From Apostichopus japonicus (lineage: Eukaryota; Echinodermata; Holothuroidea; Aspidochirotida; Stichopodidae), in the NCBI RefSeq assembly GCF_037975245.1, contig NC_092568.1:41591631-41655630 (forward strand): a stretch of DNA of 64,000 nucleotides. Direction: 5' to 3'. The position numbers were made by a program, and so were the translations under genes. Positions 3,370 through 43,690 of the stretch are shown one piece after another (position 1 is the first letter of the stretch; every line of letters begins with the position of its first letter). Under the pieces are notes generated by a model. That model was not told where the DNA came from. It made no database searches and saw nothing but the letters and a program-made list of their open reading frames with translations.

Positions 3370-3579
3370 TGTGTGGTAAGTATGTCGAACGATCTGTAAG
3401 TTCAGAGATAAAATGTTCAAATTTGAGGTATAACCTGGCAATGGGTCCAACTTGATCCCTCTCTCGTTACACGGTGAGGTTTCCTCGAAAGGAACGATTT
3501 TTCAGGAGGTGCTGCACTCTTTAGATCTTTTCGCTATCGAATCCGAGGTAGTGAATGAATAAGGGTGTAGAAAATTTGC

Positions 3580-20430: not shown

Positions 20431-20931
20431 GTGAGTACATTGGGATTGGTACTTAGAAATGAAGAGAAAAGAGAAATGGTTTAAACTTTCAACTTCCGTG
20501 TATTTATACTATACAAATACTAAATAACTCAAGAATATTTAATTGTTACGTGATCACATCAAGTAATATATGGTTGGAATGCAATGGGAGACCAATCTGA
20601 ATAAGCCTGGGATATGGAATTCTTTCAAAGCTGAATTACACTGCCTGCATAGTATATATGCTTGTTTATCAATTACAATAACTCAGAGTAAAAATAATAG
20701 AAGAAATGTTTGATCCATTTCAACAAATAGCACTGACCAAGGAGGCAAGTAAAGCTATCAGGTTATGTTGGAGCACCCAACTCCCCCCCCCCCCCTCCCC
20801 AGTGAGTGAAGGTATCAGGTCGTGATTGAGCACCAACATGTCATCAACCTCCCTCCCCCCTCCCCCCTGGTGAGTTAAGTACCAGGTCATGATGGAACAT
20901 CATCCAGTCATCAAACATCCCCCAGATATTC
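20431..20931. other. Unique spacer before the inverted repeat
   Basis: No gene. Two C-rich short direct repeats near 20782-20800 and 20850-20868 (CACCAAC... TCCCCCC) are present. Confidence 0.5.
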
Positions 20932-23313
20932 AAACTTTATATAAGTTAGGCTAAAGAATAATATACCCAGCAGTAGAGCATTATACAAGCGGGATGGGAG
21001 AGGAGGGTAATGTGGCTGTTTATGATTGGCTGAATGGTTACTTGATCCTTACGTGCACCAACCTGACCAATAGCAAATGATGTCAGATGGGCTCTGTTTA
21101 CACTCTCTATTCATTGCATATATATGTTCTAAATCATGTGCATAACAACTACAGACAAGCATTCATGGACATAAACAGAAAGAATGGCTTAATGATGCAA
21201 ACAATATTCTGATATGAATTCACATACCTGCAATGAAAGACCTTGTGACTTTGGTGTAAACAAATGAGTGTATGAATAAGTACTACCATTACCACAGCAT
21301 TACTAAGAACAAACTTAACATAACAAACAATTTACACCTTTGACTTTCAACCGTTTCAAAATAGTTCTTGTGAAATATGCAAGAGAAAACCAGTTATAGT
21401 TATACTAGAAGCACACTCTATTCATTGTATAAGTAAGTTGGTGATTTGTGAAACATCTTAGAAAATACTTCAAATATGACAGGCCTCTTTTATATTATAA
21501 TTTATGACATACCAGCATGAATATGCATCAGAGATATTTTAGATATCAAAGCAATGATTTGTAATTAATAAGAATTCAAGGTTGGAGTGATGAAGAAGTA
21601 AGTTGTTACATGGTACATATTAGAATACTTACAACACTGAAAAATATTAGTATTACTTTATATACTAACAACGGCAACAGCCATCTTGTACTAATCTACC
21701 AAATCTAGTAGATAATTTACATATCATAATATATAAGCAATAATAAGAATTCCTGTCTGGGCATCAGTAACCTTCCAGTTGCATTACTTATTTTTAAGGG
21801 TAAATAGCAATAACCCCAAGAAGAGATAACCTGACCAAGAATTATATGTGTGCGACTTACATCAACAGCTCAAGAAAAGTGTCTTAAGTATGAACATCTA
21901 TACCAGAAAAATCCCAAACTGGTTAGAATGAGAAGGGTAGAATGAGCAAGAGGGCAGTAGACCAGATGGGCCAGTCACCAGGTGAGGCCAGTGCTAAAAG
22001 GATCCTGCTCTTCACACAGTAGATTAAGAGTGCAGTTGTTGTGAGGAGACAGGAAAGTGAGATGTGAAGTAAATTCTTAATCTACTGCAGCTTAGTTATG
22101 TACCGATATATTTGTGCAGTAAGCCAGGTATGGTGAATTTACCATTATCCTTATGTGATAAGAAACAGCCTTTAAAATGTAATAAAATAATTTTACAATT
22201 GTTCTCTTGGTAGACATTAATTGCCTGGTATGATAAATTTACCATTACCCCAATTTGATAAGAAACACACTTTGAAAATGTGATCATGTATTTTCACAAT
22301 TATACTCTTGGTAGACATTAGTTGTTTGACTCTTTCGAAACAAAAACAAAAAATCTGAAAATGTTACCAAATTTAGCTAGAGGTTCTCAAGACACTTGCA
22401 ATTGGAAATAATACTAAGACACTCGAATAGGGACATTTGCACTCAATGAATGTTGCTTAGCCAATGATTTCTGACTTCGTTCAATTCTAGAATTTGTCAT
22501 AAATCAAACCTAAAGTCTTTCTTAATTAGCCTTGTGTAAATGCATTCTCCATACTTAGTGTACAGAGTGTAATGTATCTGGTGTCTCATCACAATATGGT
22601 TTGTGAAATGGGCAAAGTACTTTACAAGAGAAACTTCATAACTCTAATTTTCAACACTACATATTTCCTTGAGTATGCATGTTAATATCAGCCCTCCCAG
22701 GAGAGGGATTGACATGGGAAGGATGAGGTAGGCATAACCTATAAACTAATTGTATTCCTATTTAAAGCTGTAATCTGTATTAGATTGAATTTGCATCATT
22801 CTCACCCAAATCATGTAATGTTAGCAAATAGTTGGAAACCCTTCACCCTAAATATGAGATTTGTGTGACTGCAAACACTAAATTTCCAGAATTGTATTCA
22901 CATATAAGTCAAAACCATTCACAGAATGACAGTGGGGGTAATTCATGGTTCAAAAGAACATTTAACTTAACAACTGAATTCTCCTCCCCACCTCTAAACC
23001 CAAAAAATCACAATCTCATTTACCATGACACTAAGAATATTTGTTTATGTAATAATATTTCTCTCCTTTTTTATCATTTAATTGATCTGATCTGATTTTC
23101 ATTGATCAGTGGACAGTAGGGATATCAGGCTTTAAGAATAAACACAAAAACCTAACAAATTCTCATTCCCATCTCTGACCCAACATTCACACTTTCTTCC
23201 CCGTGATTCTACGAAGATTAATAATATTTAATAATATTTCTAAAATATCTCAAAATATAAATGATCTGAGTTACATCTTAGATGTAGTTGTCTCTGTGGT
23301 TGGTTTTCTGTCA

Positions 23314-23376
23314 TTGTAAACATCCAGCTAACATTGCCATCTTTTATGCTTTAAATGAAAGCTTTCATAAACACAA
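23314..23376 (-). promoter_or_regulatory. SECIS element of SelL copy A
   Basis: In the 3' UTR, about 385 bases after the stop. On the minus strand: a short outer helix (TTGTG with TACAA), the ATGA of the SECIS core at 23368-23365 facing GGAT, a helix AGCT-TT-CATT against AATG-TT-AGCT, unpaired AAA, and a small upper stem GCAT/ATGG with loop AAAAG. This is the layout of a form 2 SECIS, which recruits SECIS-binding protein 2 so that TGA is read as selenocysteine. Copy B has the same structure. Confidence 0.8.
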
Positions 23377-23759
23377 CTACAAAAGACTGCCACAGAAGAC
23401 AACTACACTATAAAGTAGTCCATATGCTCTGCTATGGATACAACACGGATAAGCCATCTATCCTCTATACAGCAAAGCATATAAACTAGAGAAAGAAGCC
23501 TCAAATCTGATCTATAACGAGAATCGATACTATGGTTGCTCGGAGACGCTGCTTGACAACCACTCATTCTTCGCTACCTGCAGGTTTGCCCGTCCAGCCA
23601 GTATCACCACTCGATGGAGGTTTCGATCCTAGCTTTCATCAATGTAACTGAAGCAATGAGAGCTTGTATTAAGAGAATCCATCTCCGACCAAAAGAGTAC
23701 TTTGATTGATAAATAAGTCACTGATAAAGTCAATGGTACAAAAGATTCCAAAGAGAAAT

Positions 23760-26700
23760 TCAATGCGATGAGAGAGGATGGACCGACCCACTCTGGAGAT
23801 GAGGACTGTCAAGATTCTGTGAGAAACAAAAACAGACAGATATTAAATAGAGACATAGCTGGTAGAAATAAAATTAATCACTGGTTTGATTTAATATGCC
23901 AGATATGTAACACTGGTTAACTCATAACTGTAACAAGAATGTTTCTAATATTGGCCTGGGAGTTATTTTACAATGCTTAGCAGCCACATGTGTGGGAAGA
24001 ATAACTGCTTATAACTGGCACTTTATGTCTGGTGTGATATCCAATTGCATACTTTTAGCTCATTTTGGATTCTCCTACAGTTCAGAAGATCGCAGTTCAG
24101 AAGACCCACCATATTTTAGCTGACCAGAGCTCACACCTACAAACTTTCCAGATGCTAGGTTTCCAAATGCTAACTTTTGTTTCTAATTTCACCACCTTTA
24201 TCCATTCACCCATAGCACTGGTAACTTAATACTTGATGACAATGAGTATATCAACTGCCCCCCTCTTTTTTTCCTCAAAGTCTGAGATCCTTTCACTAAA
24301 TTCTTAGATTTTTTTCAAAAGTTCTTTTAAATGATTCAGATAAAACGAAGATACAGAGGGATACACAATCAAGAGAAGAGACAGGAAGAATGATCATCTC
24401 TCTCTTACTCTGAACAGGTCCAGCACAAATATACACTAGTCAGGGTTCATCCCTACTGTGAAGGATGTCACACCAAGTTACTACAAAAACAGGTTAGACA
24501 TTTTAACCTTTACAATGATAGTTACTCGGGTCAGACATTTTAACCTTTACAATGATAGTTACCCGGTCTAGAAATTTGAGTCTTTACAAGGATAGTAACC
24601 TGGGTCAGACATTTGAAAGTTACCCGGATCAGACATTTGAACCTTTACAAGAATAGTTACTCGGGTCAGACATTTTAATCTTTTCAAGGAAAGTTAACCG
24701 GTCCAGAAATATCTAATCTGCATCTTATCCTTACCTTGATCACATCGAGGAGTTTTTCAACAGAAGGGCGATCGGTGGATGCCTGACTCACATAGATCAT
24801 GCTGTATCGACCAGCACCGTCCAACACAATGTTACCTCCCATCTAAGAAACAAGAGTACAATATGGTTGTAAATCACTAACTAACAAAGCAGCCTCGATA
24901 ACAGACAACGACTATGTGATACCTTACATTGAACAGCAGAGAGAGAGAGCAGGAGAAGATTGCACCTTTCACAGAACCTCATTAAAACCCTCTATTACAG
25001 CAGTTTAGTTACACTACATGGCACTCCTGATAGGAATTATTAATAAACTAACATCTCACTAGTAAAGTAACTTGCAGTTGCATTATTTTTAAGTGGCAGA
25101 CAAGCATTGCATAAGCAATACAATACAAGCATGTATAAACATTTCTGGAGAAAATATACAGGCAAATATTAACTGCTCCTTTTTTTTGAGGGGGGGGGGG
25201 GAGGTGGGGCATCTTACCTGTTCTTTATCATCTTCAAGGTCGGAGAAGTCCTCCGGCAGTCTCTTCTGGGCCAGTGTTTGCTCTGTGTAGTATTTCAAGA
25301 CTCCAGTGTTCCACACACCAGACACAGTCCTACCCATTCCTGCTGCTTTGTAGATCTGTTGAGAATACATATATATAATTGAAAATGAGCTGCTGAAACA
25401 CTGGGATCTTCCAGTCATTCATTGCAACCTAATGTGTTAAGATCTTGAATGGAAAGTTTTAGGCTCCTTACAAGTCTTTCCTAATGTCAAAGACCCTATG
25501 TATTGTAAAATGTGTTTTTAAATACTTTTTAATCTTGGAAGAACAAATATGTTCATAACAAAGTCATGAATAAGGGGTTAATCAACGGTCTAGCGTGCGT
25601 TACTCACAGGATTAATGCACGATCGGGGGATAATGCAAGCGATGCACGAGGGCGGAGCCCGAATGCATCCAGCGATAGCATTAACACCCGGAGTGCATTA
25701 ATCATGTGAGTAACGCACGCTAGACCGTTGATTAACCCCGTACATTCATACACTACCATTTGTGTGGGGGAAAAATCATAAAACAAAACATAACAAAACA
25801 TTTTTGGTTACATATAACCAAAGATTTATTTAAGTCATGCCCCGTAATTTTACCGTGCATTACTCACAGGATTAACCACGGTCAGCTGACCTGAATGGAA
25901 CAATAGGATTTAGGAATCTTTACTAAGTATGAATGAACAACATCTTATTATTGTCTTTGATCACCTATACAGTATCCACATGCACTATGTTATGGTGGTC
26001 AAACTTATTAGTTGCAACTATAATACCAGGGAGCTGATACCCTACCCTCATTTAATGATTATGATCTGTGAGCAGGGAGCTATTACCCCACCCTCTTTGA
26101 AGGGGCATGGAGCTATTACCCTATCTTAATTGTAGGGGCAGGGAGCTGTTACCCTATCCTCACTGAAGTGGCAAGGAGCTTTGACCCCACCATTGTTGAA
26201 AGGGCAGGGAGCTGTAAACCTACTTCACTGTCGTGGCAAGGAGCTATGACCCCATCCTCAGTGAAAGGGCAGGGAGCTGTTACGCTCATTGACGGGGCAG
26301 GGAGCTATTGCCCTATCCTCATTGAAGGGGCAGGGAGCTATTGCCCTACCCTCATTGAATGGGCAGGGAGCTATGACCCCACCCTCATTGAAGGGGCAGG
26401 GAGCTGTTACCCTATCCTCATTGAAAGCTATCAGCATGGATCTCAGACACAGTCCTCATTGAAAATCCATGAGCATGAGAAGGGAGAAGGAAGCTACTTC
26501 TTACCCTCTTTTAGTGATATCAGCAGTGACTACTCTACATTTAATGCTATAGGAAGGAAGCCTTTACCCTACCTTTCATGAACTTATCCTAGGAAGTGGA
26601 ACACATTAGGTGGTCTGTGATGTCATCATGGTATATTAACTTTGGAAGCTTTTTTGATCATCATTGATTTATCATTGAGGATATATAAATATATATGTAG

Positions 26701-29700
26701 ATAGTTTGCTTAGCTGTTAATGTTTTCTGGTCTTGGAATTATTACCAACATGCAATGTTTTATAACGATATGTTATTTCCCTCCATTGATAAATGATTTG
26801 AATGTTATAGGGCAACAACAAACATTGTCAACTCAATCGTCAGGATGACATCAATATCTCAGTTGTTGCCAGATGATTTCTCAAGATATCATTTAATATG
26901 AAATTCATATCTTCATCAATCATTCAAAATCATATCTGCTACAAGTATCTGATACCACTGAGAATGCAGAAACTTTGTGTTAAGCAATGAACTTCAGCCA
27001 CCAGAAGATCCTTTAAAACCTACGATCCATGAGCAGCTAAAACTGATTGCCATACCTGTCTCTCTTGATCGAGGAGCATGTCATAATCAAATCCAGTCTC
27101 CTTCAGCCATCTTTGAGCACCAGCCATCACACCAAATGAAACAATTACAATTTTTGTACCAAGCTTATTGAAGTCTTCTTCATGCTCTCGTATAGCACGG
27201 ATGTGCTCTCGTCACGGAAGTCATGCAAAATGCCTCAACAACACAAGGACCAAGCTTCTACACCCATCCAGATGTGATCCCAATGTGCTTTCCCTGAGAC
27301 AAAACAATTATTATGATATCAGTGAAATTATAAATTATACAATAACATGTTAACATTTTCAAGAGTCTCAGTATTACCAAAGTTGAGATGAAGGGAAGAC
27401 AAATGTCCATAATTCATCTGAGTCTGGGAGTCAGTCCAGAAGAACTAAAAGAACAATTCCCTGATAGAGGGCTAATATAACAAATATTATGTTAATATCC
27501 TGTGTAGACTCTTATCAAGGACACGCTTTTCTGTCAATTCAGCCACTTTGCACACTGAACATGTTAAGATATCTTGGTTGAAATCTGATTCAGGTTTGCT
27601 CAATGTCAGTGATTTGCCTCATTTCAAGATGACCTATGACCTCTTCTATGGTGTTACAGCTATGCCCCTTCATCCAACCAAATGGTTATGTTCTTAGCAC
27701 TAAAACTTGTAAACACTGACTGATACTTACCATATATTTCTATACTACACATCATATGACATTGTAGTCATAAAGAGCGAATGTTGTTTCCAATAAAATC
27801 AACTCACCTTCCTGTCCTGGCATCTGTAAGTTTCACATTCAATGGTCCCAATCTCCTAATCTGTTGCTTTTTAACGTGGCAATAGTCCACTGGACTTTGC
27901 CAAGTCCGGTCACAATCTACCAGAAAGTGGTCCCAGTCATCCTGTGTAAACAAATTAATTCCATCACTGCATCACAACGAAAAAAAGCTGAACACTACGG
28001 CGAATAATGCAGGAGTAAATTGTGTTAAATATAGTTGTAGGACGACATCCCTCAAACCAACAGTTGATTTTCAGTTACGAGTGCAAGATGATTTTACTTA
28101 TATTAAAAGTAATGTTCAAATTATTATTGATTTTTATTGAAGGTGATGAAAATAAGACTATTCCAATCAAAGATTATTTATTGATCAGAAAGTACTGATT
28201 CCATTCCATTCTAACACATTCTTACCCAGATACTTCTGTTATGTATCACAAATAGTAGTTATGGAAGTAGTGGCACTACAGCACACAGAATTGATCCATG
28301 GATGTGTAACGCTACACAGCTAAAGTCTACCTGACAGAGATGGGTCTATATTGCAAAATGACTTAAAACACATTGATAAATCATCAATATCCTCTAGCTA
28401 ATAGCTATACACACTGTGAGACTGCAGATGGAATCAAATAAGAAACCTGATGACTGCACGCCCAAATATACTACGGATTACTGGAGAAGCATTGGAAAAT
28501 CAAATGACCACTCACTGTAGCCTGCACACACTATTAGGAGCTATGAATGGACCAAACCTTAATTATCACTGTACCTCAACTTCACATAGATCACTAAAAC
28601 AGTCTTGGATCTCTTTGCTTGCATAGTACTTCTGAAAAAGCTTTTCATAGGCAGCCCATGTCAGAACTCCAATGCTGTGGAGAAGGAAGATGTTGCCAAC
28701 AGTATCAGTACGTTGGCCACACATTTGTCCCATTTTAAGGAATTAAGTAATTATGCAAAGTTAAGCTTTGTAATCTGATGAATTCCTGATTGATGCTACA
28801 CTAAATCTTTTGTTTGCATTGTGCAATAAAATTTCCCTTTTGGATATCCTGGGAGCAGTACTTTAAAAGTTGTTTTATGATTTTATTTCACTAACATAAC
28901 AAAGTAAATAAATTTCATTAAGAAAGCTCTTCAAAGATTTCCAAATTTAAAATAAAAGATGACACAACATTTTGTGGGATACCAAATTCATGCGATAAAA
29001 ATTAACTACCTCATTAATTATGAGTTGTTAAATAGCTGTAATCGCATCTGAGCTCCTTTATGCAGATGGTGGAACTGTTTCCCATTGTCTGTTAATATGT
29101 CATGGCATGTTCAGAAAGACACAAAGGAACAAACTCAACATGCAGCAAGAATCAATCAATACTAACCTTCTCAGGGCTTTTTCATATGCACCACAAATTT
29201 TGCTCCCCAAAACACAGTCATCTAGAAAATGTTCTGCAGATCCTGAAAAAGAAAGAAACCAAGTCTGTTGGGTGTATGCAATGCATATGATGAGTACAGT
29301 CGTTGTCACTGACATGCAATCTCAATCTCTTTTTTTACTAATATTCAGTCAGAATAATTATTCTTTTTCTATTTCACTAGTTCAAACAATGGGGAATCGG
29401 TCTCCATATAAACCTATCAAACCTAACCCCTTAAACACTGATCAATCCTACCGACTAACAATTCCCGAATGTTTCCTTACTAAAGTATTATATTTAATCA
29501 AGGCTGGTCGGGCGAAATGACCAGGCTGGTCGGGCGAAATGACCAGGCTGGTCGGGCGAAATGACCAGGCTGGTCGGGGGAAATGACCAGGCTGGTCGGG
29601 GGCTATGACCAGGCTGGTCGGGCGAAATGACCAGGCTGGTCGGGCGAAATGACCAGGCTGGTCGGGCGAAATGACCAGGCTGGTCGGGCGAAATGACCAG

Positions 29701-30330
29701 GCTGGTCGGGCGAAATGACCAGGCTGGTCGGGCGAAATGACCAGGCTGGTCGGGCGAAATGACCAGGCTGGTCGGGCGAAATGACCAGGCTGGTCGGGCG
29801 AAATGACCAGGCTGGTTGTGCGAAATGGCAGTTGGGCGAAATGGTTGTTGGTCGAAGTGACCTGTTTCCGTTCTTATGCTGTAGCCTTAGTAGCTCTACT
29901 GTAGGGCCTTAATTAGGCTAGGGCATCGGCTTAAATTGTACTTGTAGGTCATATCTCTCTCTAACAAAAATCGCTGAAATGTGAAAGAAAAGGAATGGCA
30001 AATGCATTAACGTTCATTTCAGTTTATATATTGGCCAAACTTTCGCACATAACTATACTAAAGAACATATAATTATGTTTTATGTGTAGAAAGTCTGTTT
30101 TAAGTAAGTGTACATGTAGCACAGATACAATCGTAAGTTGCATAACGCAAGAAAAGGAAGTAACACTAACACTGAGTAACAATTAAGTTAGTATTAACCA
30201 TACCTCTCGCAGCAGTTTCTCCTTCTCTACACGCCTCTCGTAAACTCTTTGTGAGTGTTTCTGTTACTTCTACCAAGGCAACTTGTTCTTCCGACGCGAT
30301 GCCATTATCTTTCATCACCGTTTTCGCCAT
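23760..30330 (-). CDS. SelL: Selenoprotein L (diselenide UxxU, Prx-like2), copy A
   Basis: Eight coding exons: 30330-30204, 29242-29167, 28674-28575, 27941-27808, 27293-27056, 25355-25218, 24842-24735 and 23816-23760. They total 978 bases, 325 residues, with agreeing phases. The last domain is peroxiredoxin-like2: LVLVLLRHFA, then TGA-LP-TGA, then REHIRAIREHEEDFNKLGTK, KETGFDYDMLL and MGGNIVLDGAGRYSM. The two in-frame TGA codons (27223-27221 and 27214-27212, residues 170 and 173) sit exactly where the CxxC of the PRXL2/SelU relatives lies. Selenoprotein L is known to carry UxxU with a diselenide bond. A SECIS lies in the 3' UTR. The final TGA at 23762-23760 is taken as the stop. Likely a redox enzyme; substrate unknown. 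Copy A looks intact. Confidence 0.9.
24480..24715. repeat. Short degenerate tandem repeat in SelL A intron 7
   Basis: About five imperfect units of GGTCAGACATTTTAACCTTT plus ACAATGATAGTTACTCG, around 38 bases each. Copy B keeps only traces at the matching place (about 40000-40080). Confidence 0.65.
25574..25739. mobile_element. Fold-back MITE in SelL A intron 5/6 region
   Basis: Arms of about 47 bases, GGGGTTAATCAACGGTCTAG onward, are inverted copies with one mismatch around a 72-base centre. It is missing from arm B at the matching place, so it inserted after the duplication. Related sequence (TACTCACAGGATTAACCACGG) lies at about 25862. No clear target duplication. Confidence 0.8.
26030..26460. 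repeat. ~33-bp minisatellite in SelL A intron 5
   Basis: About 12 units of the type TTGAAGGGGCAGGGAGCTAT plus TACCCTACCCTCA. The same array, reverse complemented, is in copy B at 38760-39170, so it is older than the inverted duplication. Confidence 0.92.
29395..29875. mobile_element. 22-bp minisatellite element in SelL A intron 1
   Basis: About 14 units of GGCTGGTCGGGCGAAATGAC plus CA at 29508-29820, ending in the family's terminal GCGAAATGGTTGTTGG and AAGTGACCTG. Arm B has no copy in its intron 1. One unit reads GGGGGCTATGACC instead of GGGCGAAATGACC. Confidence 0.8.
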
Positions 30331-30707
30331 TTTTGGCTAGCTAAACTACCATACTAGGAGAAGTGTGTATGGCAGCCACTACGTCGCTACAATTCAGTGT
30401 TCACTTCAACGTAACGTGGATATGTTTTCTTATCATTTCGTCGGTGTGTGATCTGTGTTGCACAGTATCTTGATGGTATGCTGCCGGATATAAAAAAAAG
30501 CAAGTCACTGTGGTTCGGCAATTTTACGTGGTGTAAGCTGCCGTGACGTATGTACTACGTCTCAATAATGCACGTTTCGTTCAAGGTGAAAAGAAAACTA
30601 TGTAGGCCAAAATCAAATCATCTTTGCTGTTATAAAATAAGTTCTATGCACATTGCTTACATCGTAGACTATTGTATGTACTGCAAAAATGCTAGGTAGG
30701 ACAGGAC

Positions 30708-33008
30708 TTATGGCAAGCCGTTTTAACAGTTACCTCGTGATAGAACTAATTCCACTTAAGTAGAAAACAATTAAGCTTAAGTGAAATTAATTGCATTTTA
30801 CTTAAGTTTAATTGTATTCTACTTAAGTAAAATTACCACTTTCTTTTAAGCTTAAGTTAAATTCAATTTTAATTCAGCTTAATTGTATTCTACTTAAGTA
30901 AAATACAATTCTACTTAAGTAAAATTTGATTTTCACTTAAGCTTAATGAATTTTACTTAATTGTATTTGTATTTTACTTAACAAGAATACAATAAAGCTT
31001 AATTGAAATTGAATTTAACTTATGCTAAATTGTATTCTACCTAAGTAGCATAAAAATGCACTTAAGCTAAATACAATTGTATTTTACTTAAGTAAAATGT
31101 AATATTGTATTTTACTCAAGAAGAATACAATTAAGCTTAAGTGAAATTGAATTTAACTTAAGCTAAATTGTATTCTGCACTTAAGCTAAATACAATTGCA
31201 TTTTACTTAAGTAAAATTTAATTCTACTGAAGTAAAATACAGTTTAGCTTAAGTGGAATTGAAGGATCGGTCGTATGGCAAGCTGTTTCAACATTTACCT
31301 AGTGCGGAAAGTGGTTGGTCTGGGGGCAATGTTTACATGGGTACCATGCCATGGTACCATGCCTTGTGGTACTACTACTACTACAAGTACCAGTGATTGG
31401 TTGTATGTCGTGTTGTAGTCGTTCCCTTGCCCTCAAAAGTGCCCTTCCAACTGCATCAGCAACAGTTTGCAACGATTGATTGACTGGCTGCATTTTCCGA
31501 ATGTCTAACGTTCAGACTCAGAAATAAACATAGCCTTGCTTCATTTGCTAAGGGTAAGTATCGTGTTATGTTCGTACATACACAACGAAAGCTGGATAAG
31601 TATGGCAGTATGAGGAATGGCCTCAAATAGTTACGTAACTATATACGTCTTGAACGTGACTCTATAGGTCTCGCACCACAATTAATTGTTCTATTTACTT
31701 ACACACTAAACTCGTCACTTTCAAGACCTGCCAAAGCATAGATAGAAGTTTTTAACTGGTATATCCTACCCACCACATGATCGCTGAGATCTTGGCCTAT
31801 CATGGCCATTGCAAACTTCCATATCATGACCGTTTAGATTTTGAGCTAGAAGAGGAGCAAGTTTAGCATACTCAGGGGCGTCGGAGGCTATTTTGGATTG
31901 GTACGGCAGATCAGAGTGTGGCCATTTATCATAATTATCGGGGGGACGTTTGGTAGGTCAAACTACTCTACGCGCCACCATGGTTGGCGCGTAGCGTAAT
32001 GGAGAAAATTGCCTCCCAGACTGCAGGAAATGGCACTTCCCGAGCTTGAAAACAAGACCCCTGCCAAGCCAGAGTAGTCACATTTAGCCTACTTGCTTGT
32101 TTCATTTTGGTTCTTTATTTTTTGCCATTTTTTTTCTTAGTCCTACTTTTCTTTTTTTCTTTTCTTTTTTGCGCCGTGAACATTGGTCCGGCGAACCTGC
32201 GTTCGCCGGACCTGCCGTACTGGCTCCGACGCCCCTGATACTGAACCCCCACCCTTCCATCTGCTCGTTCGGAGTAATATCAACATTTAACCAAAGATTT
32301 TCTAAAATGGTTTATATCACATTCGATCCTCCCTATTTTCACATAATCTATGCTCCTTTATATATGACACATGATATATCGATGACAGTAACTGATAACA
32401 TGCATAAGCAAGCTTTACTTTAGGTATTTTGACTTCTTTTCTCTGACAATGTTTAACCTTTTGAGCGGATGAACACTACGGTACTCTTATTGTGGTGCGG
32501 TACCTATAATAGTATACAAAGACGCATTTCGCGGCAAGTACAGTGACGCAATGAGTAGCATACTGATTGACCAGTCACATTTCACTTAAGCGTAATTCTA
32601 TTTCACTTAAGTGAAATAGATTGACCAATTACATTTCACTTAAGCGTAATTCTATTTCACTTAAGTAAAATGCAATTTAGCTGAAGTGAAATTAAAAAGC
32701 CATTTTCGCATTTTACTTAAATAGAATTGAATTTTACTTCAGCAGAATTGTATTTTACTTAAGTAGAATTGAATTTTCCTTAAGCTTGATTCAATTAAGC
32801 TTAAGCTAAATTCAATTTTACTTAAGTAAAATATGATATAGACAAAAACCGTTTGAAGTTAAGTAAGTGGAATACAAATAAGCTTAAGTAAAATGCAATT
32901 CTACTTAAGTGAAATTAATTTCACTTACGCTTAATTGTATTCTACTTAAGTGGAATTAATTCTACCTAAGTAGAATAGCGAGGTAAGCGTTAAAACGGCT
33001 TGCCATAG
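30708..33008. mobile_element. Inverted-repeat element built of CTTAAG arrays
   Basis: Starts TATGGCAAGCCGTTTTAAC and ends with the reverse complement GTTAAAACGGCTTGCCATA at about 32990-33008. Just inside both ends lie AT-rich arrays (30745-31260 and 32580-32975) of words like TTTTACTTAAGTAAAATT. A second start-like copy lies at 31268 (TATGGCAAGCTGTTTCAAC) and another end at about 34335, so several copies may be joined or nested. A 365 bp MITE is inserted at 31873. Confidence 0.6.
31873..32237. mobile_element. 365-bp MITE, 5-bp TSD ATACT
   Basis: Ends CAGGGGCGTCGGAGGC and GCTCCGACGCCCCTG are inverted copies, flanked by ATACT at 31868-31872 and 32238-32242. It contains the hairpin motif GCGCCACCATGGTTGGCGCG at 31973-31992. 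Same family as 11106-12981 and 14558-15892. Confidence 0.88.
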
Positions 33009-33601
33009 GGACTACATGTAAGTATAAGACTGGAGGGCTTGACGGTATATGATCTGCTTCTCGTCAGGTTTTCCTCATTATAGGAAGGCTGTATACTAAA
33101 CTTTAACCGAGATTTCTCTGAATTAAGTTAACTTTGATTCAATGATTGACACATTTAGTTTTAATATTTAATACTCAATGAAAACAACATCTCCATTGTG
33201 GTTAATATATATATATATTTCTCTATAGAGATTTGAAATACATGCGTACACCTACAGACACGTAGCCTACTATATGTATTTGTAAACTGTTTAATGTTAT
33301 TAACTATATACAACACCGTATTTATAGTGACTGTGAAGGGACACGTGCCTCCTTAAGTTTTTCGAACGGCTTAAATTTCATAAAACACACAAGTAAAGTC
33401 GTAAACACAAATGTAGTTAAAATAATGGTAATGATAGCACCATTTTGCATCTAAGCCCGCTTACCGAAACATCTCAAAGGGAGGGGACACCACTCCCATT
33501 AGAACTTTCCCCAGAAAGTGTGTCAAGCAAATTTTGTGCCTCCCCTCCCCTCGCCCTCACTTAAAAATCAACAGAAGGTAAGCCTACGTGATGCTATGAA
33601 A

Positions 33602-33815
33602 GGAAGCAGGTCACTTCGCCCAACAACCATTTCACTCAACTGTCATTTCGCCCAACCTTACCATTTCGCCCAACCAGCCTGGTCATTTCGCCCAACCAGC
33701 CTGGTCATTTCGCCCAACCTTGATTAAATATGATATTTCAAAAGGAAGCAGGTCACTTCGCCCAACAACCATTTCGCCCAACTGCCATTTCGCCCAACCT
33801 TACCATTTCGCTATG
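33602..33815. mobile_element. Partial copies of the 22-bp minisatellite element
   Basis: Two joined left ends, each starting GGAAGCAGGTCACTTCGCCC (33602 and 33743), with two to three internal units reading ACCAGCCTGGTCATTTCGCC. It is the inverse orientation of the 29.5 kb copy. Confidence 0.8.
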
Positions 33816-34139
33816 AAAAGCTATACTCATATAGCTCATTCACACCACAAAGGCTATACGCCCTGGCTAGACCCTGTATCTGTATAAAGCAGAACCTTTC
33901 AGTGGATGACTACTAAAAGAGGGCGCAACCAAGTATACTTAATTCTGGGTAAGGGCTTCATACACCTCCCCCTGAGAATAAAGTCAAGGGGGATAATCCC
34001 CGGCACCCCCTCCCCCACTGGCAGACAGAATATTACACACACAAATTATAGTGTACAGTAAAAACATAATACATATAAAACATGTTCGTGAGGAACAACC
34101 TAAACAGTCGAAAATACTTCAACATTGTTTAAGACGGTT

Positions 34140-34344
34140 GCAAACTATAGGACGATTAAGCGTAAGCTAAATTGAATTTTATAAAATACGATATTTGACA
34201 AAAACCGATTGAACTTAAGCTAATATGAATTCCGCTTAAGTGGAATACAAATAAGCTTAAGTAAAATACAATTCTACTTAAGTGCAATTAATTTCACTTG
34301 AGTAGAATAGCGAGGTAAAACTTTAAAAGTTAAAACGGCTTGCC
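34140..34344. repeat. CTTAAG-type AT-rich array, end of element
   Basis: Contains AAGCTTAAGTAAAATACAAT-like words and ends in GTTAAAACGGCTTGCCATA at about 34338-34356, matching the end of the 30708-33008 element. No matching start was found nearby. Confidence 0.6.
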
Positions 34345-34670
34345 ATACGGGCATTATTGATACGTAATACATACATCACAGCAGCTTACAACCACTGATC
34401 TGTAGAGATCAGTGCTTACAACACGTGAAATTGCCGAACCACAGTGACTTGCACTTTGTTATATCCGGCATCATCTATCGTTCACAATATTTACCATATG
34501 TGCAATGCAGATCACACACATAGAAAACATATCCAAGTTGAAGTAAACACTAAGCTGCAGCGACGTATTTAGCTGCCATGCACACTTCCCATTGTTTGGT
34601 AGTTTAGCTCGTCAAAAATGGCGAAAACGGTGAGGAAAGATAATGGTATCGCGTCGGAAGAACAAGCTGC

Positions 34671-35589
34671 GGAGTAATTATAGAATACAGGGCCACTCGA
34701 TGATACTATCTGAGCATCCGGATGCGCGGATGCTCACTCTCACCCCAGTACGTATGTGAGTAAAAAATGTCAAAGTCCCAGTTCTTTCTTTTTGAGTGGA
34801 TGCGCGGATGCGTGGATGCGGAGTCAAAAATTTCCTAAATCTTTTGCTAGTACTTCTGTGGTGGAATTTTAGAGGGCGTCACACATGTACGGATGCCTTT
34901 TAAGAACGACACACTATTGATGTGGAATATCTTCGTACATTCGGAACTTTCAGTATTGGAAATACGTGATGGTATATGTCGAAACTTTTCCGAAAATTAT
35001 TTAAGTCAATTCCTAGTACTCCCGGGGTGGATGCGCGGATGCGTGGATGCGGAGTCAAAATGAAATACGTGATAAAATGAAAAATTTCCTAAATCTTTTG
35101 CTAGTACTTCTGTGGTGGAATTTTAGAGGGCGTCACACATGTACGGATGCCTTTTAAGAACGACACACTATTGATGTGGAATATCTTCGTACATTCGGAA
35201 CTTTCAGTATTGGAAATACGTGATGGTATATGTCGAAACTTTTCCGAAAATTATTTAAGTCAATTCCTAGTACTCCCGGGGTGGATGCGCGGATGCGTGG
35301 ATGCGGAGTCAAAATGAAATACGTGATAAAATGAAATACGTGATGGAAATTAGAGGGAGTCAAAATGAAATACGTAATGGTATATGGGGAAACTTTCGAA
35401 AATTATTTAAGTCCATTCCTAGTACTCCCGGGTGGATGCGCGGATGCGCGGATGCGGAGTCAAAATGAAATACGTGATGGAATTTTAGAGGGCGACATAC
35501 GTGTACGGACATGTACAGACACACCGCGCATCCGCGCATCCGGATGCTGGGAAGAGTTAATGAATGGCCCTGTATTCTATAATTGTACC
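34671..35589. mobile_element. 919-bp element in SelL B exon 1, 8-bp TSD CAAGCTGC
   Basis: Ends share AATTATAGAATACAGGGCCA and its reverse complement, flanked by CAAGCTGC at 34663-34670 and 35590-35597. Copy A exon 1 gives the empty site (AACAAGTTGCCTTGG). The inside holds two direct copies of a ~245 bp block (34800-35036 and 35030-35285) and many GGATGCGCGGATGC words. The 8 bp duplication suits hAT. No transposase. Confidence 0.88.
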
Positions 35590-38500
35590 CAAGCTGCCTT
35601 GGTAGAAGTAACAGAAACACTCACAAAGAGTTTACGAGAGGTGTGTAGAGAAGGAGAAACTGCTGCGAGAGGTATGGTTAAAACGATTACTAACTTAACT
35701 GATACTCAGTGTTAGTGCTACTTCCTTTCTTGCATTATGCAACGTACGATTGTATCTGCGCTGTAAGTACACTTAGGCCTACTTAAAACAGACTTGCTAC
35801 ACATAATTCAATAATTCTACGCTCTTTACTATAAGGAGAACATTTTGAAGCCCAGTTTACATAAAAAGAGAAATTTCTCTTGCCAGGTTATGCAGTTTCC
35901 TCATAGATTGATAGAGCTAAGTTATATGCTCAAGTATTGCGTTTGCCCGGTCCCTCATTATGCACACTGGTCATTGAAGTACTGTATGTAGATAACAGGT
36001 TAGTGAAGTACAGAATGGTCTCAAGTATTAAAAGAGACAACTATCTCTATTAAAATAGGAGTAGAATGATCTTTGTCATATCATCATGTTGGTGTTACGT
36101 GCTGTTGCTTGTTTTGTGGTTGATGCCAAAAGATAATCAAGCAAGTTGCATACTTTGTTTATGGATACCCATTTTATGAAGAGTGATTTACCAGGTGCTC
36201 AGCTTTTGTCAGAAAAGTAATAGACTTTTCTTTTGGGTTGTGCTAGTAATTGGCAAGACATCAAGTACAAGTAGATAACTTTTTAAGTATAGTAATGTTT
36301 GAATTGTGAATCACAACAAAGAACTGAGATTGCATGTCAGTGACAACGACTGTACTCATCATATGCATTGCATCCACCCAAGACACTCTGTTTCTTTATT
36401 TTTCAGGATCTGCAGAACATTTTCTAGATGACTGTGTTTTGGGGGCCAAAATTTGTAGTGCATATGAAAAAGCGATGAGAAGGTTAGTAAATTAATTGAG
36501 TGTTCTTGCTGCTTGGAGTTTGTTCCTTTGTGTCTTTCTGAACATGCCATGTCATATTAACAGACAATTGGAAACAGTTCCACCATCTGCATACATATAG
36601 GAGTTCAGATGCAATTACAGCTATTGAACAACTCATAATTAATGAGGTAGTTATTTATTATTATTATTATTTTTGCATGAACTTGGTATACCACAAAATG
36701 TTGTGTCATCTTTCATTTTAAATTTGGAAATCTATAAGAGCTTTCTTAATGAAATTGATGTACTTTTTTAAGTTAGTGAAATAAAATCATAAAACAACTT
36801 TAAAAGTACTGCTCCCAGGAGATCCAGAGGGGAATTTTATTGCACAATGCAAACAAAAAGATTAAGTGTTGCTTCAGTCAGGAATTCATCAGATTACAAA
36901 GCTTAACTTTGCATAATTACTTAATTCCTTAACATGGGACAAATGTGTGGCCGACGTACTGATACTGTTGGCAACATCTTCTTCCTTCTCCACAGCTTTG
37001 GAGTTTTGACATGGGCTGCCTATGAAAAGCTTTGTCAGAAGTACTATGCTAACAAAGAGGTCCAAGACTGTTTTAGTGATCTATGTGAAGTTGAGGTACA
37101 GTGATAATTAAAGTTTGGTCCATTCATAGCTCCTAATAGTGTGTGCAGGCTACAGTGAGTGGTCATTTGATTTTCCAATGTTTCTCCAGTTATCCGTAGT
37201 ATGCTGGGTAGGGGTAATAAGTTTTGTTATTTGATCCCACCTGCATTCTCGACAGTCTCTGCATAGTTTGGGGATATTAATAAGTTATCAATGTGTTTAT
37301 GTCATCTTGCAGTTAAACGCATGTCTGTCAGGTAGACTTTAGCTGCATAGCATTACACATGGATCAAGTCTATGGCTACTATTTGTGATAAATAACAGAA
37401 CTATCTGGGCAAGAATTTGTTAGAATATATTGGAATCAGTACTTTCTGATCAATAAATTATCTTTGAGTGGAAAAATCTTAATTACATCACCTTCAATAA
37501 TAATTTGAACATTACTTTTAATATAAGTAAAATCATCTCGCACTCGTAACTGAAAATCAACTGTTGGTTTGAGGGATGTCGTCATACAACTATATATTTA
37601 ACACAATTTACTCTCTGCATTATTCGCCGTAGTGTTCAGGATTTTGTCGTGGTGATGCAATGATGGAATTGATTTGTTTACACAGGATGGCTGGAACAAC
37701 TTTCTAGTAGATTGTGACCAGACTTGGCAAAGTCCAGATGACTATTGCCACGTTAAAAAGCAACAGATTAGGAGATTGGGACCGTTGAATGTGAAACTAA
37801 CAGATGCCAGGACAGGAAGGTTAGTTGATTTCCTTGTAAACAACATTCGCTCTTTATGACTACAATGTCATGTGATGTGTAGTATAGAAATAAATGATCA
37901 ATATTGTTCAGTCAGTGTTTACAAGTTTAAGAGCTAAGAACATAACCATTTGGTTGGATGAAGGGGCATAGCTGTAACACCATAGAAGAGGTCATAGGTC
38001 ATCTGGAATGAGGTAAATCACTGCCATTGAGCAAACATGAATCAGATTTCAACCAAGATATCTTAACATGCTCAGTGTGCAAAGTGGCTGTATTGACAGA
38101 AAAGAGTGTCCTTGATAGAGTCTACACAGCATATCAATATAAAATTTGTTTTATAAGCCCTCTATCAGGGAATTGTTCTTTTAGTACAGTACTTCTGGAC
38201 TGACTCCCAGACTCAGATGAATTATGGCCCTTTGTCTTCCCTTCATCTCAACTTTGGTAAAACTGAGACTCTTAAAAATGTTAACATGTTATTGTATAAT
38301 TTATAATTTCACTGATATCATAATAATTGTTTTGTCTCAGGGAAAGTACATTGGGATCACATCTGGATGGGTGTAGAAGCCTGGTCCTTGTGTTGTTGAG
38401 GCATTTTGCATGACTTCCGTGACGAGAGCACATCCGTGCTATACGAGAGCATGAAGAAGACTTCAATAAGCTTGGTGCAAAAATTGGAATTGTTTCATTT

Positions 38501-38759
38501 GGTGTGTTGGTTGGTGCTCAGAGATGGCTGAAGGAGACTGGATTTGAGTATGACATGCTCCTCGATCAAGAGAGACAGGTATGGCAATCACTTTTAGCTG
38601 CTCATGGATCGTAGGTTTAAAAGGATGTTCTGGTGGCTGAAGTTTATTGCTTAACACAATTTCTGGAAATAATCTGCATCTCTTAGTGGTATCAGATCTT
38701 TCTTGTAGCACTTTGTGTGGAGAAGATATGAATTTCATATCAAATGATATTTTGAGAAA

Positions 38760-39170
38760 TCATCCCCTTTAATGAAGGTGGGGTCATAGCTCCCTGCCCA
38801 TACAATGAGGGTAGGGCAACAGCTCCCTGCCCCTTTAATGAGGGTAGGGCAACAGCTCCCTGCCCATTCAATGCGGGTAGGTTAATAGCTCCCTGCCCGT
38901 TCAATGAGGGTAGGTTGATATATCCCTGTCCCTTCAATGAGGGTAGGGCAATAGCTCCCTGCCAATTCAATGAGGGTGGGGTTTTAGCTCCTGCACTTTC
39001 AATGAGGATAGGACAACAGCTCCTTGCCCCTTCGATGAGGATAGGGTAACAGCTCCTTGCCCCTTCAATAAGGATAGGGTACCAGCTCCCTGACCTGTCA
39101 ATGAGGGTAGGGTAACAGTCCCCTGCCCCTACAATGAGGATAGGGTAATATCTCCCTGTCCTTTTAATGA
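38760..39170. repeat. ~33-bp minisatellite in SelL B intron 5
   Basis: About 12 units of the type AGCTCCCTGCCCCTTTAATG plus AGGGTAGGGCAAC. Reverse complement of the array at 26030-26460 in copy A. Confidence 0.92.
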
Positions 39171-41240
39171 TGTCCTTGCAAGATTAGAAAGTATGTAAAA
39201 ACACAATTTGACGATACTTAGGGTCTTTGACATTAGGAAAGACTTGTAAGGAGCCTCAAACTTTCCACCTCAAGATCTGAACACATTAGGTTGCAATGAA
39301 GGCTGGAAGATTCCAGTGTTTCAGCAGCTCATTTTCATTATATATATGTATTCTCAACAGATCTACAAGGCAACAGGAATGGGTAGGACTGTGGCTGGTG
39401 GTTGGAACACTGGAGCCCTGAAATATTACACAGAGCAAACGTTGGCCCAGAAGAGACTGCCGGAGGACTTTCCCGACCTCAAAGATGATAAAGAACAGGT
39501 TAGATGCTCTCACAACAAAACAACGAGCAGTTAATGTTTGCCTGTTTATTTTCTTTAGAAATGTTCATACATGCTTGTATTGTATTGCTTATGCAATGCT
39601 TGTCTGCCACTTCAAAATAATGCAACTGCAAGTTACTTTACTAGTGAGATGTTAGTTTATTAATAATTCCTATCAGGAGTGCCATGTAGTGTAACTAAAC
39701 TGCTGTAATAGAGGGTTTTAATGAGGTTCTGTGAAAGGTGCAATCTTCTCCTGCTCTCTATCTCTGCTGTTCAATGTAAGGTATCACATTGTGGTTGTTC
39801 TCTGTTATCGAGGCTGCTTTGTTATTTAGTTATATACAACCATATTGTACTCTTGTTTCTTAGATGGGAGGGAACATTGTGTTGGACGGTGCTGGTCGAT
39901 ACAGCATGATCTATGTGAGTCAGGCATCCATCGATCGCCCATCTGTTGAAAAACTCCTCGATGTGATCAAGGTAAGGATAAGATGCAGATTAGATATTTC
40001 TGGACCGGGAAACTATCCTTGTAAAAGTTCAAATGCCTGACCCAGGTCACTAACCCTGTAAATGTTCATATGTCTGGACGGGTGAGTGGATAAAGTTGGT
40101 GACATTAGGAACAAAGCCTAGTTTCTTGAAGGTTGTAAGTGTGAGCTCTGGCCAGCTAAATAATGGTGGGTTTTACATGCGGTCTTCCGAATTGTAGTAG
40201 AATACAAAATGAGCTAACACTACATGTGAGGATACGCGGGCAATAAGGAGACATGAGAGGGTACTAGTTGCTACCATCGCTTGTTCTGGTGGCCAGGGTG
40301 TTTATTATATTTTCCCTCGATGAGCATGTTTAATTTAGTAACAACAAAAAGGACGGTGTAGTACCTTCAGGTGGCTTTCCTAAACCACGTCTTAAATGCT
40401 GGATCTTCCGGTAAAACTCTACATTTGTAAGTCTACATTTGTAGGTAAGGAAGTTAGTAAGTATGATGTATGTTCATAAGTCATATAATCGACAAAATAT
40501 GTCATTGTGCAGTAACGAATGCCAACAGGGATGAATATACAATTAAAACAGGGCTCCCTGTGGGATCCACTACATATACAATTGGATAGCCCATCAGACA
40601 TAAAGTGCCAGTTATAAGCAGTTATTCTTTCGACACATGTGGCTGATTAGCATTGTAAAATAACTCCCTTCCAGGCCTTTATTAGTTAATGAGTTAATAA
40701 GTGTTACATATCTGGCAAATTAAATCAAACCAGTGATTCATTTTATTTCTACCAGCTATGTCTCTATTTAATATCTGTCTGTTTTCGTTTCTCACAGAAT
40801 CTTGACAGTCCTCATCTCCAGAGCAGTGGATCGGTCCATCCTCTCTCATCGCATTGAATTTCTATTTGGAATTTTTTGTACCATTGACTTTATCAGTGAC
40901 TTATTTATCAATCAAAGTACTCTTTTGATCGGAGATGGATTCTTTTAATACAAGCTCCCATTTCTTCAGTTACCTTGATGAAAGCTAGGATCGAAACCTC
41001 CATCGAGTGGTGATACTGGCTGGACGGGCAAACCTGCAGGTAGCGAAGAATGAGTGGTTGTCAAGCATCGTCTCCGAGCAACCACAGTATCGATTCTCGT
41101 TATAGATCAGATTTGAGGCTTCTTTCTCTAGTTTATATGCTTTGCTGTATAGAGGATAGATTGCTTATCCGTGTTGTATCCAAAGCAGAGTATATGGACT
41201 ACTTTATAGTGTAGTTGTCTTCTGTGGAAGTCTTCTGTAG

Positions 41241-41303
41241 TTGTGTTTATGAAAGCTTTCATTTAAACCATAAAAGATGGCAATGTTAGCTGGATGTTTA
41301 CAA
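41241..41303 (+). promoter_or_regulatory. SECIS element of SelL copy B
   Basis: About 384 bases after the stop. Core ATGA at 41249-41252 faces GGAT at 41292-41295. The helix is AGCT-TT-CATT against AATG-TT-AGCT, the unpaired AAA follows, and an upper stem CCAT/ATGG closes loop AAAAG. The upper stem pairs better here than in copy A (CCAT against GCAT). Outer helix TTGTG/TACAA. Confidence 0.8.
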
Positions 41304-41949
41304 TGACAGAAAACCAACCACAGAGACAATTACATCTAAGATGAAACTCAGTCAATTAAAATGTGAGATATTTTGGAAATATTATTAAATATTATTAATC
41401 TTTGTAGAATCACTGGGAAGAAAGTGTGAATTTTGGGTTAGATATGGTAATGAGAATTTGTTAAGTTTTTGTTTTGTAAACAAATATTCTTAGTGTCATG
41501 GTAAAAGAGATTGTGATTTTTGGGGTTTAGAGGTGGGGAGTAGAATTCAGTGTTAAGTTAAATGCTCTTTTGAACCATGAAATACCCCTACTGTCGTCCT
41601 CTGAATGGTTTAGACTTATATATTAATAGAATTCTGGAAATTTAGTGTTTGCAGTCACATAAATGTCATATTTAGGGTGAAGGGTTTCCAGCTATTTGCT
41701 AACATTACATGATTTGGGTGAGAATGATGCAAATTCAATCTAATGAAGATTACAGCTTTAAATAGGAATAAAATTAGTTTATAGGTTATGCCTACCTCAT
41801 CCTTCCCATGTCAGTCCCTCTCCTGGGAGGACTGATATTAACATGCATACTCAAGGATTTATTTAGTGTTTTGAAGGTTCAGAAATTTCTCTTGTAAAAT
41901 ACATTGCACTTGTAAACCACTTTGCTCATTTCACAAACCGTATTATGAT

Positions 41950-42130
41950 TATTATTATTATTACACCAGTACTTATAGAGGGCAATATCCCGAAGCTCAA
42001 TGCGCTGAACAAACAAGTAAACTATACAGCAATTAACCATAGACTTCCTTGAAGTAATGCTTTTTCAACAAAGACTTAAAGGTAGAAACAGAACATGCAT
42101 TCCGAATGTTTGACGGGAGTTTTATGATTA
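41950..42130. mobile_element. SINE/LINE-tail-like insert in arm B
   Basis: Absent from the matching place in arm A (about 22580). It starts with an ATT microsatellite, has ACTTATAGAGGGCAATATCC and CTCAATGCGCTGAACAAACA, and ends TGACGGGAGTTTTATGATTA. The flank word TATTATGAT/TTATGAT appears on both sides, as a likely target duplication. Confidence 0.6.
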
Positions 42131-43690
42131 TGATGCGACACTAGACACATTTTACCCTGTACACTATATAGATGAGAATGCATATATATAAGGCTAATTA
42201 AGAAAGACTTAAGGGTTGATTTATGACAAATTCTAGAAGTGAACAAAATCATAAATCATTGGCTAAGCAACATTCATTTGGTACAATGTCTGTTTAAGTG
42301 CCTATTAATACTTCTAATTGCAAGTGTCTTGAGAACCTCTAGCTAGATTTGGTAACATTTTCTGAATTTCCTTTTTTTTCAAAGAGTCAAACAATTAATG
42401 TCTACCAAGAGTACAATTTTGAAATACATTATCACATTTTCAAAGTTTGTTTCTTTTCACATCAGGGTAATGGTAAATTCACCATACCAGGCTTACTGCA
42501 CAAATATATTGGTACATAACTAAGCTGCAGTAGATTAAGAAGTTACTTCACATCTCACTTTCCTGTCTCCTCACAACAACTGCACTCTTAGTCTACTGTG
42601 TGAAGAGCAGGATCCTTTTAGCACTGGCCTCACCTGGTGACTGACCCATTTGGTCTACTGCCCTCTTGCTCATTCTACCCTTCTCATTCTAACCATTTTG
42701 GGATTGTTCTGGTATAGATGTTCCTACTTGAGACACTTTTCTTGAGCTGTTGATGGAAGTCGCACACATATAATTCTTGGTCAGATTATCTCTTTTTGGG
42801 TTATCGCTATTTACCCTTAAAAATAAGTGATGCAACTGTATGGTTACTGATGCCCAGGCAAGAATTCTTATTATTGCTTATATATTATTATATGTAAATT
42901 ATCTACTAGATTTGGTAGATTAGTACAAGATGGCTGTTGCTGTTGTTAGTATATAAAGTAATACTAACATTTTTCAGTGTTGTAAGTATTCTAATGTGTA
43001 CCATGTAACAACTTACTTCTTCATCACTCCAACCTTGAATTCTTATTAATTATAAATCACTGCTTTGATATCTAAAATATCTCTGATGCATATTCATGCT
43101 TGTATGTCATAAATTATCATATAAAAGAGGTATGTTATATTTGAAGTAATTTCTAAGATGTTTCACAAACCACCAACTTACATAAACAATGAATAGAGTG
43201 TGCTTCTACTATAACTGATTTTCTTTTGCATATTTCACAAGAACTATTTTGAAATGGTTGAAAGTGAAAGGTGTAAATTGTTTGTTATGTTAAGTTTGTT
43301 CATTGTGTTTCTATGGTAATGGTAGTACTTATTCATACACTCATTTGTTTACACCAAAGTCGCAAGGTCTTTCATTGCAGGTATGTCAATTTATATCAGA
43401 ATATTGTTTGCATCATTAAGCCATTCTTCTTTCTGTTTATGTCCATGTTAATCATGAATGCTTGTCTGTAGTTGTTATGCACATGATTTAGAACATATTT
43501 ATGCAATGATTTGATAGTGTAAAACAGAGCCCCCTCTGACATCATTTATTGGTCGTTACATTGGTGCACTTAGGGATCAGGGCCAATCATAAACAGCCAC
43601 ATTACCCTCCTCTCCCATGCCGCTTGTATAATGCTCTAATGCTGGGTATATTATTCTTTAGCCTAACTTATATAAAGTTTGAATATCTCA

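What the first reader, a model, noticed from the sequence alone, without database searches (positions are those of the whole stretch)
23314..41303. Inverted pair of diselenide (UxxU) selenoprotein L genes
Both arms encode a peroxiredoxin-like2 protein in which the redox motif reads TGA-Leu-Pro-TGA followed by Arg-Glu. Seen directly: both TGAs are kept in both copies, the frame is open on each side, exon phases agree across eight exons, and a SECIS-like hairpin sits in each 3' UTR. Known: SelL is the family with UxxU and a diselenide bond, in aquatic organisms; relatives of the PRXL2/SelU group have CxxC at this place. Inference: these are two real selenoprotein genes that a standard annotation would split or call pseudogenes.
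Basis: partly seen in the sequence, partly recalled or inferred. Interest (0 to 1): 0.92.

Follow-up and report, generated by a model that had tools for sequence, protein, structure and literature searches.

The report
Twin selenoprotein L genes, one interrupted
An unidentified, probably animal, genome carries two mirror-image copies of a known two-selenium redox protein gene; one copy looks intact, while the other has a jumping-gene-like insert in its first exon.

Summary
The TGA-Leu-Pro-TGA motif is real in both arms, and sequence evidence favours selenocysteine over stop. Left gene (minus strand): eight exons, GT-AG introns, 325 codons, SelL-related NCBIfam match (123.3 bits, cut-off 120), SECIS in the 3' UTR. 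All 61 bacterial homologues read have Sec or Cys at both sites (CxxC 23, UxxC 22, UxxU 16); four Chloroflexota ones share the exact stretch LRHFAULPUREH.

Right exons 2-8 and the SECIS are intact, which suggests that the copy was functional for most of its life and was hit recently. It may be dead now, or may start inside the element; the window cannot decide.

So: one apparently functional SelL gene plus an inverted, disrupted paralogue; a new member of a known kind. By-product: UxxU is not one clade in the bacterial and window rows (p-AU 0.002, pattern first seen in a smaller tree) and CxxU was not seen, which suggests repeated switching at the second Sec. Organism, expression and a possible haplotype misjoin are untested.

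The parts
20924..30538 (-). left arm of the inverted duplication
   Evidence: blastn of the arms, pieces 75-92% identical outside tandem repeats; inverted repeats
34414..43688 (+). right arm of the inverted duplication
30204..30330 (-). left SelL exon 1 (ATG at 30330-30328), intact
29167..29242 (-). left SelL exon 2
28575..28674 (-). left SelL exon 3
27808..27941 (-). left SelL exon 4
27056..27293 (-). left SelL exon 5, holding U170-L-P-U173 (TGAs at 27223-27221 and 27214-27212)
25218..25355 (-). left SelL exon 6
24735..24842 (-). left SelL exon 7
23760..23816 (-). left SelL exon 8, coding part, ends in TGA stop
23313..23377 (-). left SECIS element
   Evidence: Rfam RF00031, 34.0 bits, gathering score 35; the 65 nt alone fold as a SECIS-shaped hairpin, -9.6 kcal/mol
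34618..34670 (+). right SelL exon 1, 5' piece, ending in the first target-site copy (34663-34670)
34671..35589 (+). 919-bp element inserted in right exon 1; ends match inverted at 22 of 25 bp; 254-bp internal tandem duplication with 100% match; in-frame TAA near its start
35590..35671 (+). right SelL exon 1, 3' piece, beginning with the second target-site copy CAAGCTGC
36407..36482 (+). right SelL exon 2
36996..37095 (+). right SelL exon 3
37686..37819 (+). right SelL exon 4
38341..38578 (+). right SelL exon 5, holding UxxU (TGAs at 38411-38413 and 38420-38422)
39361..39498 (+). right SelL exon 6
39864..39971 (+). right SelL exon 7
40798..40857 (+). right SelL exon 8, coding part, ends in TGA stop
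41240..41304 (+). right SECIS element
   Evidence: Rfam RF00031, 35.2 bits, over the gathering score; the 65 nt alone fold as a SECIS-shaped hairpin, -12.0 kcal/mol

Best explanation
The locus is an inverted, head-to-head duplication of a SelL gene (two-Sec peroxiredoxin-like protein). The left gene makes a 325-residue protein in which both in-frame UGAs are read as Sec under one 3'-UTR SECIS; the two Secs of U-L-P-U are expected to act as a reversible diselenide/selenol pair in a thioredoxin-fold oxidoreductase. After the duplication, and rather recently, a small DNA-transposon-like element landed in exon 1 of the right copy, so that copy no longer makes the native protein from its own start codon. 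Shown: gene anatomy, motif, SECIS matches, homology, insertion. Inferred: expression, Sec insertion, diselenide chemistry, order and recency of the events.
For: SelL-related model over cut-off (123.3 v 120); AhpC-TSA_2 49.8 v 27. SECIS matches in both 3' UTRs at matching places. Of 22 genome-collection matches to the TGA-TGA pattern 12 read as homologues, 11 of them matching with the motif masked (E 4e-15 to 2e-7); the other 10 have no significant match. In 8 of 8 genomes tested (of those 12) the SelL-related match over cut-off has 2 TGA inside; selB over cut-off in 6 of 8, in 2 of 14 controls. Sec or Cys only at both columns in 61 of 61 bacterial rows. Left v right dN/dS 0.35, bootstrap 0.19-0.62. 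Right exons 2-8 have no frameshift against the left where 4.4 were expected at the rate of introns 2, 3, 4 and 6. The element has an exact 8-bp target duplication and inverted ends and a 100% matched internal repeat, while those introns differ at 146 of 1950 sites: hence recent.
Against: No transcript or protein evidence. The left SECIS is 1 bit below the gathering score, and a 91-nt left stretch prefers another fold (z -0.6; right z -2.5). The family score is only 3 bits over its cut-off and the right protein was not scanned. 2 of 8 UxxU genomes (incomplete assemblies) show no selB over cut-off. dN/dS of a pair cannot say which copy is constrained. No eukaryotic SelL sequence could be aligned with these tools.
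Confidence: 0.87

Rival explanations
1. The right copy still makes a selenoprotein from a start codon inside the inserted element, with a new N-terminus fused to the rest of exon 1.
For: The frame of the exon 1 remainder is open back to 35344 inside the element, with in-frame ATGs at 35365, 35377, 35452 and 35560; 0.6% of 3000 dinucleotide shuffles of the element are open as far, 33% give at least one in-frame ATG. Exons 2-8 and the SECIS are intact.
Against: Noted after looking; the element has internal repeats that shuffles do not model. A transcript from the native promoter would meet the native ATG and TAA first. No transcript data.
Confidence: 0.2
2. The two arms are two diverged haplotypes of one gene, wrongly joined head to head by the assembler.
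For: Divergence of aligned introns 2, 3, 4 and 6 is about 7.5%, within what I recall for very heterozygous marine invertebrates; no reads and no own genome are held.
Against: The copies lie in opposite orientation around about 3.9 kb of spacer that matches only through AT-rich and tandem repeats, and no match over 100 bits extends beyond 20924 or 43688 in the 0.9 and 1.3 kb of flank compared; a misjoin would need an inversion as well.
Confidence: 0.15
3. The TGAs are true stops and both copies are decayed relatives of a Cys-containing peroxiredoxin-like gene.
For: No expression data; TGA is a stop by default.
Against: Both TGAs sit on the redox Cys columns and are shared by bacterial homologues, most of whose tested genomes have selB; both copies keep SECIS matches and splice sites; dN/dS below 1.
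Confidence: 0.02

Closest known systems
Selenoprotein L (SelL/SELENOL) of aquatic organisms
   Same: Two-Sec redox motif, SECIS in the 3' UTR, peroxiredoxin-like domain. PMC3473315 Table 1 lists one SelL each in Amphimedon, Trichoplax, Nematostella, Capitella and amphioxus, none in Lottia; also Ciona ESTs, fishes, with a single SECIS for both Secs, marine bacteria. All seen as passages.
   Different: Two copies in an inverted pair, one interrupted by an element.
Bacterial SelL-related proteins (NCBIfam NF040769), mostly from Chloroflexota and from the phyla of a Myxococcales and a Silvibacterium MAG
   Same: Same domain and motif; L008, L014, L016 and L021 share LRHFAULPUREH with the window.
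   Different: Uninterrupted bacterial frames; UxxC and CxxC forms also occur.
PRXL2B-type prostamide/prostaglandin F synthase (PDB 9us9)
   Same: The two Secs align with its CxxC.
   Different: Weak similarity (E 0.0017); Cys at both sites.

Membership tests
Selenoprotein L (SelL) | UxxU in a peroxiredoxin-like domain | tested here: met
   TGA-LP-TGA in both copies; Pfam AhpC-TSA_2 and AhpC-TSA over cut-offs for the left protein
Selenoprotein L (SelL) | match to the curated SelL-related model NF040769 | tested here: met
   left protein 123.3 bits, cut-off 120; right protein not scanned
[quoted passage not shown]
   right 35.2 bits, over the gathering score 35; left 34.0 bits, 1 bit under it, E 1.1e-4 for 1.2 kb
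Selenoprotein L (SelL) | diselenide bond between the two Secs | not testable with these tools
   needs protein; reported for SelL by Shchedrina 2007, seen here only through citing papers
Selenoprotein L (SelL) | coding frame complete apart from the two UGAs | tested here: inconclusive
   met in the left copy (325 codons); not met in the right copy, exon 1 interrupted
Selenoprotein L (SelL) | aquatic host | not tested
   organism unknown; no own genome held
PRXL2/SelU group | AhpC-TSA_2 domain with CxxC or a single Sec at the redox site (recalled definition) | tested here: not met
   domain met, but the site reads UxxU

The most novel reading that the evidence does not exclude
Within the SelL family the second Sec has been gained (or lost) repeatedly, always in proteins that already have the first: the window's lineage and a Chloroflexota group reached the same U-L-P-U diselenide motif separately from UxxC ancestors.
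Probability: 0.4. Interest if true: 0.55.

Novelty: new member of a known kind. Interest (0 to 1): 0.36.

Why it matters
It gives a clean SelL gene pair of a kind that ordinary annotation is likely to mishandle, with a disrupted paralogue next to an apparently intact one. The family survey gives a testable order of events for how a two-selenium redox site arises (first Sec, then second).

Tried and rejected
Window's own genome: none held. Relatives by back-translated peptides in genome contigs: 7 stretches matched a pattern, none confirmed. Plasmids by tblastn: no match. Phylum of a Colwellia MAG: 0 of 349 genomes at E <= 1e-30, but the 14 controls also rang nowhere, so absence is not shown. 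Splicing out the element: among GT-AG pairs near its ends and within exon 1, four keep the frame with only the two UGAs as stops; each also deletes native residues; no evidence that any is used. Polarising left/right differences with 30 bacterial homologues: of 12 sites, 5 favour left, 6 right, 1 neither; uninformative. Other copies of the element in the window: only its own internal repeats and short weak matches. Other open frames: 8 of those listed were scanned with Pfam, one gave a match (HSP20). Window pair + the ten-row Chloroflexota UxxU group as one clade: not rejected (p-AU 0.19), which weakens the case for separate origins.
Full report
What was checked. The finding claims two inverted SelL genes with UxxU, open frames, matching exon phases and SECIS elements. 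The arms are real: pieces of 20924-30538 match the reverse of 34414-43688. Introns 2, 3, 4 and 6 align with 146 mismatches in 1950 sites; introns 1, 5 and 7 differ much in length or align poorly (56-78% identity in a global alignment); exons 2-8 are 90-98% identical, the 3' UTR 95.6%, the SECIS match 64 of 65.

Gene models. I placed exon borders by matching the two arms and checking splice sites. Both copies have eight exons; 14 of 14 introns are GT-AG; exon lengths are 127, 76, 100, 134, 238, 138, 108 and 57 (left), the same for right exons 2-7, and 60 for right exon 8. The left gene gives 325 codons with in-frame stops only at the TGAs of codons 170 and 173 before the end. By these coordinates the second UGA lies about 840 nt upstream of the SECIS in the mRNA, if the 3' UTR has no intron.

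The missed insertion. Right exon 1 is interrupted. At 34663-34670 and 35590-35597 stand two copies of CAAGCTGC; between them are 919 bp whose ends match each other inverted at 22 of 25 positions. The native frame reads 19 codons and then TAA. The left copy lacks the element. An 8-bp target duplication with short inverted ends is typical of several cut-and-paste DNA transposon superfamilies (recalled); I do not assign one. A 254-bp stretch inside the element is doubled in tandem with 100% match, which fits a young insertion, as do the identical target copies.

State of the right copy. Exons 2-8 (854 bp) have no frameshift against the left copy. At the rate of frame-breaking indels in introns 2, 3, 4 and 6 (20 in 1950 aligned sites, both lineages together) 4.4 would be expected on the right lineage if neutral since duplication. 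So the right copy was probably constrained for most of its life. The pair's dN/dS is 0.35 (bootstrap 0.19-0.62; dS 0.110, dN 0.0385, with right exon 1 compared without the element); this cannot say which copy is constrained. A restart is possible: the frame of the exon 1 remainder is open through the last 246 nt of the element with four in-frame ATGs; 0.6% of 3000 shuffles are open as far and 33% offer at least one ATG. This was noticed after the fact.

Sec or stop. The SECIS_1 model matches both 3' UTRs at matching places: right 35.2 bits, the only Rfam match over a gathering score in the window, left 34.0, one bit under it. Alone, both 65-nt stretches fold into a SECIS-shaped hairpin with AUGA unpaired (-9.6 left, -12.0 right), but a 91-nt left stretch prefers another fold (z -0.6; right z -2.5). 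The left protein meets NCBIfam NF040769 SelL_rel_redox narrowly (123.3 v 120) and Pfam AhpC-TSA_2 clearly (49.8 v 27). Against solved structures the best match is a prostamide/prostaglandin F synthase (E 0.0017), where the two Secs fall on CxxC.

Independent relatives. One pattern scan of the genome collection (one genome for each of 84,980 species) for (R/S)HF(G/A)-TGA-xx-TGA-(R/S)E gave 22 matches. Twelve read as homologues; with the ten motif residues masked 11 match the left protein over 143-172 aligned positions at E 4e-15 to 2e-7. The twelfth, L007, is a fragment whose frame stops just after the motif. The other 10 have no significant match. Eleven of the twelve are from records titled Chloroflexi, SAR202 or Dehalococcoidia, one from a Bacillota MAG. 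Eight of the 12 genomes were searched further: 8 of 8 have a SelL-related match over cut-off with 2 TGA inside (controls over cut-off 0 of 14), and 6 of 8 have selB over cut-off (controls 2 of 14).

Family survey. With NF040769 I sampled phyla: 21 of 301 genomes over cut-off in that of L008 (titled Chloroflexi), 34 of 235 in that of a Myxococcales MAG, 0 of 349 in that of a Colwellia MAG, where the controls also rang nowhere, 2 of 249 in that of the Bacillota MAG, itself one of the two, 19 of 199 in that of a Silvibacterium MAG. I read the 52 loci returned, 2 of which repeat earlier ones, plus the 11 pattern homologues (L007 left out): 61 rows. At the two columns they read CxxC 23, UxxC 22, UxxU 16, and nothing else; no CxxU. 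Eleven of the 16 UxxU rows were chosen by a TGA-TGA pattern and the 52 loci are the best-scoring ones, so these are not frequencies. The 20 loci alone read UxxU 3, UxxC 10, CxxC 7.

Tree. With the two columns left out and any other Sec written as Cys, UxxU (16 bacterial rows and the 2 window copies) needs 6 changes on the tree, 2 of them forced by well-supported branches, and UxxU as one clade is rejected (p-AU 0.0022). The question was put after a smaller tree had shown the pattern. The window pair sits in a supported group (95/85) with UxxC and UxxU bacterial rows (L023-L027, L061, L062) and apart from the ten Chloroflexota UxxU rows of the pattern scan; but the window pair and those ten as one clade are not rejected (p-AU 0.19). 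Counts of changes do not separate gains from losses. No other eukaryote is in the tree.

Against what is known. SelL with two Secs is in print for fishes, ascidians, other invertebrates and marine bacteria: passages of PMC2397514, PMC2874816, PMC3473315 and PMC3316567; SELENOL is also named among algal selenoproteins (PMC7539508, passages), so the host need not be an animal. PMC3473315 Table 1 lists one SelL in five of six invertebrates. The founding paper (Shchedrina 2007) is not held. UxxU in Prx-like sequences of the GOS marine data is reported in PMC2398784 (passages) and a prokaryotic UxxC/UxxU Prx-like family in PMC13188914 (passages). Literature searches, seen as listings that show part of the papers found, gave no title about a SelL inverted pair or repeated origin of UxxU; this covers only the open-licence library.

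How it most likely works. Shown here: sequence anatomy and homology. From established knowledge: SECIS-binding protein and the Sec elongation factor use the SECIS to insert Sec at both UGAs, and SelL forms a diselenide in its redox motif. Inferred: the left gene does this in the source organism; the right one does not from its native start. Not known: organism, partner proteins, substrate, expression.

Verdict. The gene is a new member of a known family; the disrupted twin is an ordinary though neat duplicate-gene story; the second-Sec switching is the part worth following.

Noticed in passing
window 2695-3501 (-): Open frame with an HSP20/alpha-crystallin domain (61.5 bits, cut-off 20.8), a likely small heat-shock protein gene.
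   Followed up: partly
window 6110-6233, 29501-29827, 33662-33719: Much the same 22-bp unit (about GGTTGGGCGAAATGACCAGGCT) forms tandem arrays at three places, one in left intron 1 and one in the spacer between the genes.
   Followed up: no
window 18321-20426 and 52566-54198: Long arrays of 35-bp (61 copies) and 43-bp (38 copies) units; the first lies about 0.5 kb outside the outer end of the left arm.
   Followed up: no
window 30787-31263, 32565-32976 and 34208-34283: AT-rich repeats around TTACTTAAGTAAAAT, partly palindromic, lie in and beside the spacer between the two genes; they may have played a part in the inverted duplication.
   Followed up: no
window 26072-26425 and 38764-39170: A 33-bp minisatellite in intron 5 of both copies, so probably older than the duplication.
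   Followed up: no
61 bacterial SelL-related rows from L004-L074: CxxC, UxxC and UxxU occur but no CxxU, as if the second Sec is gained only after the first.
   Followed up: partly
L007:6575-6781: UxxU homologue whose frame ends in a stop soon after the motif: a broken copy or an assembly frameshift.
   Followed up: no
window 40970-41032 (+): A second, weak SECIS_1 match in the right 3' UTR (21.4 bits, well under the gathering score 35), probably chance.
   Followed up: no
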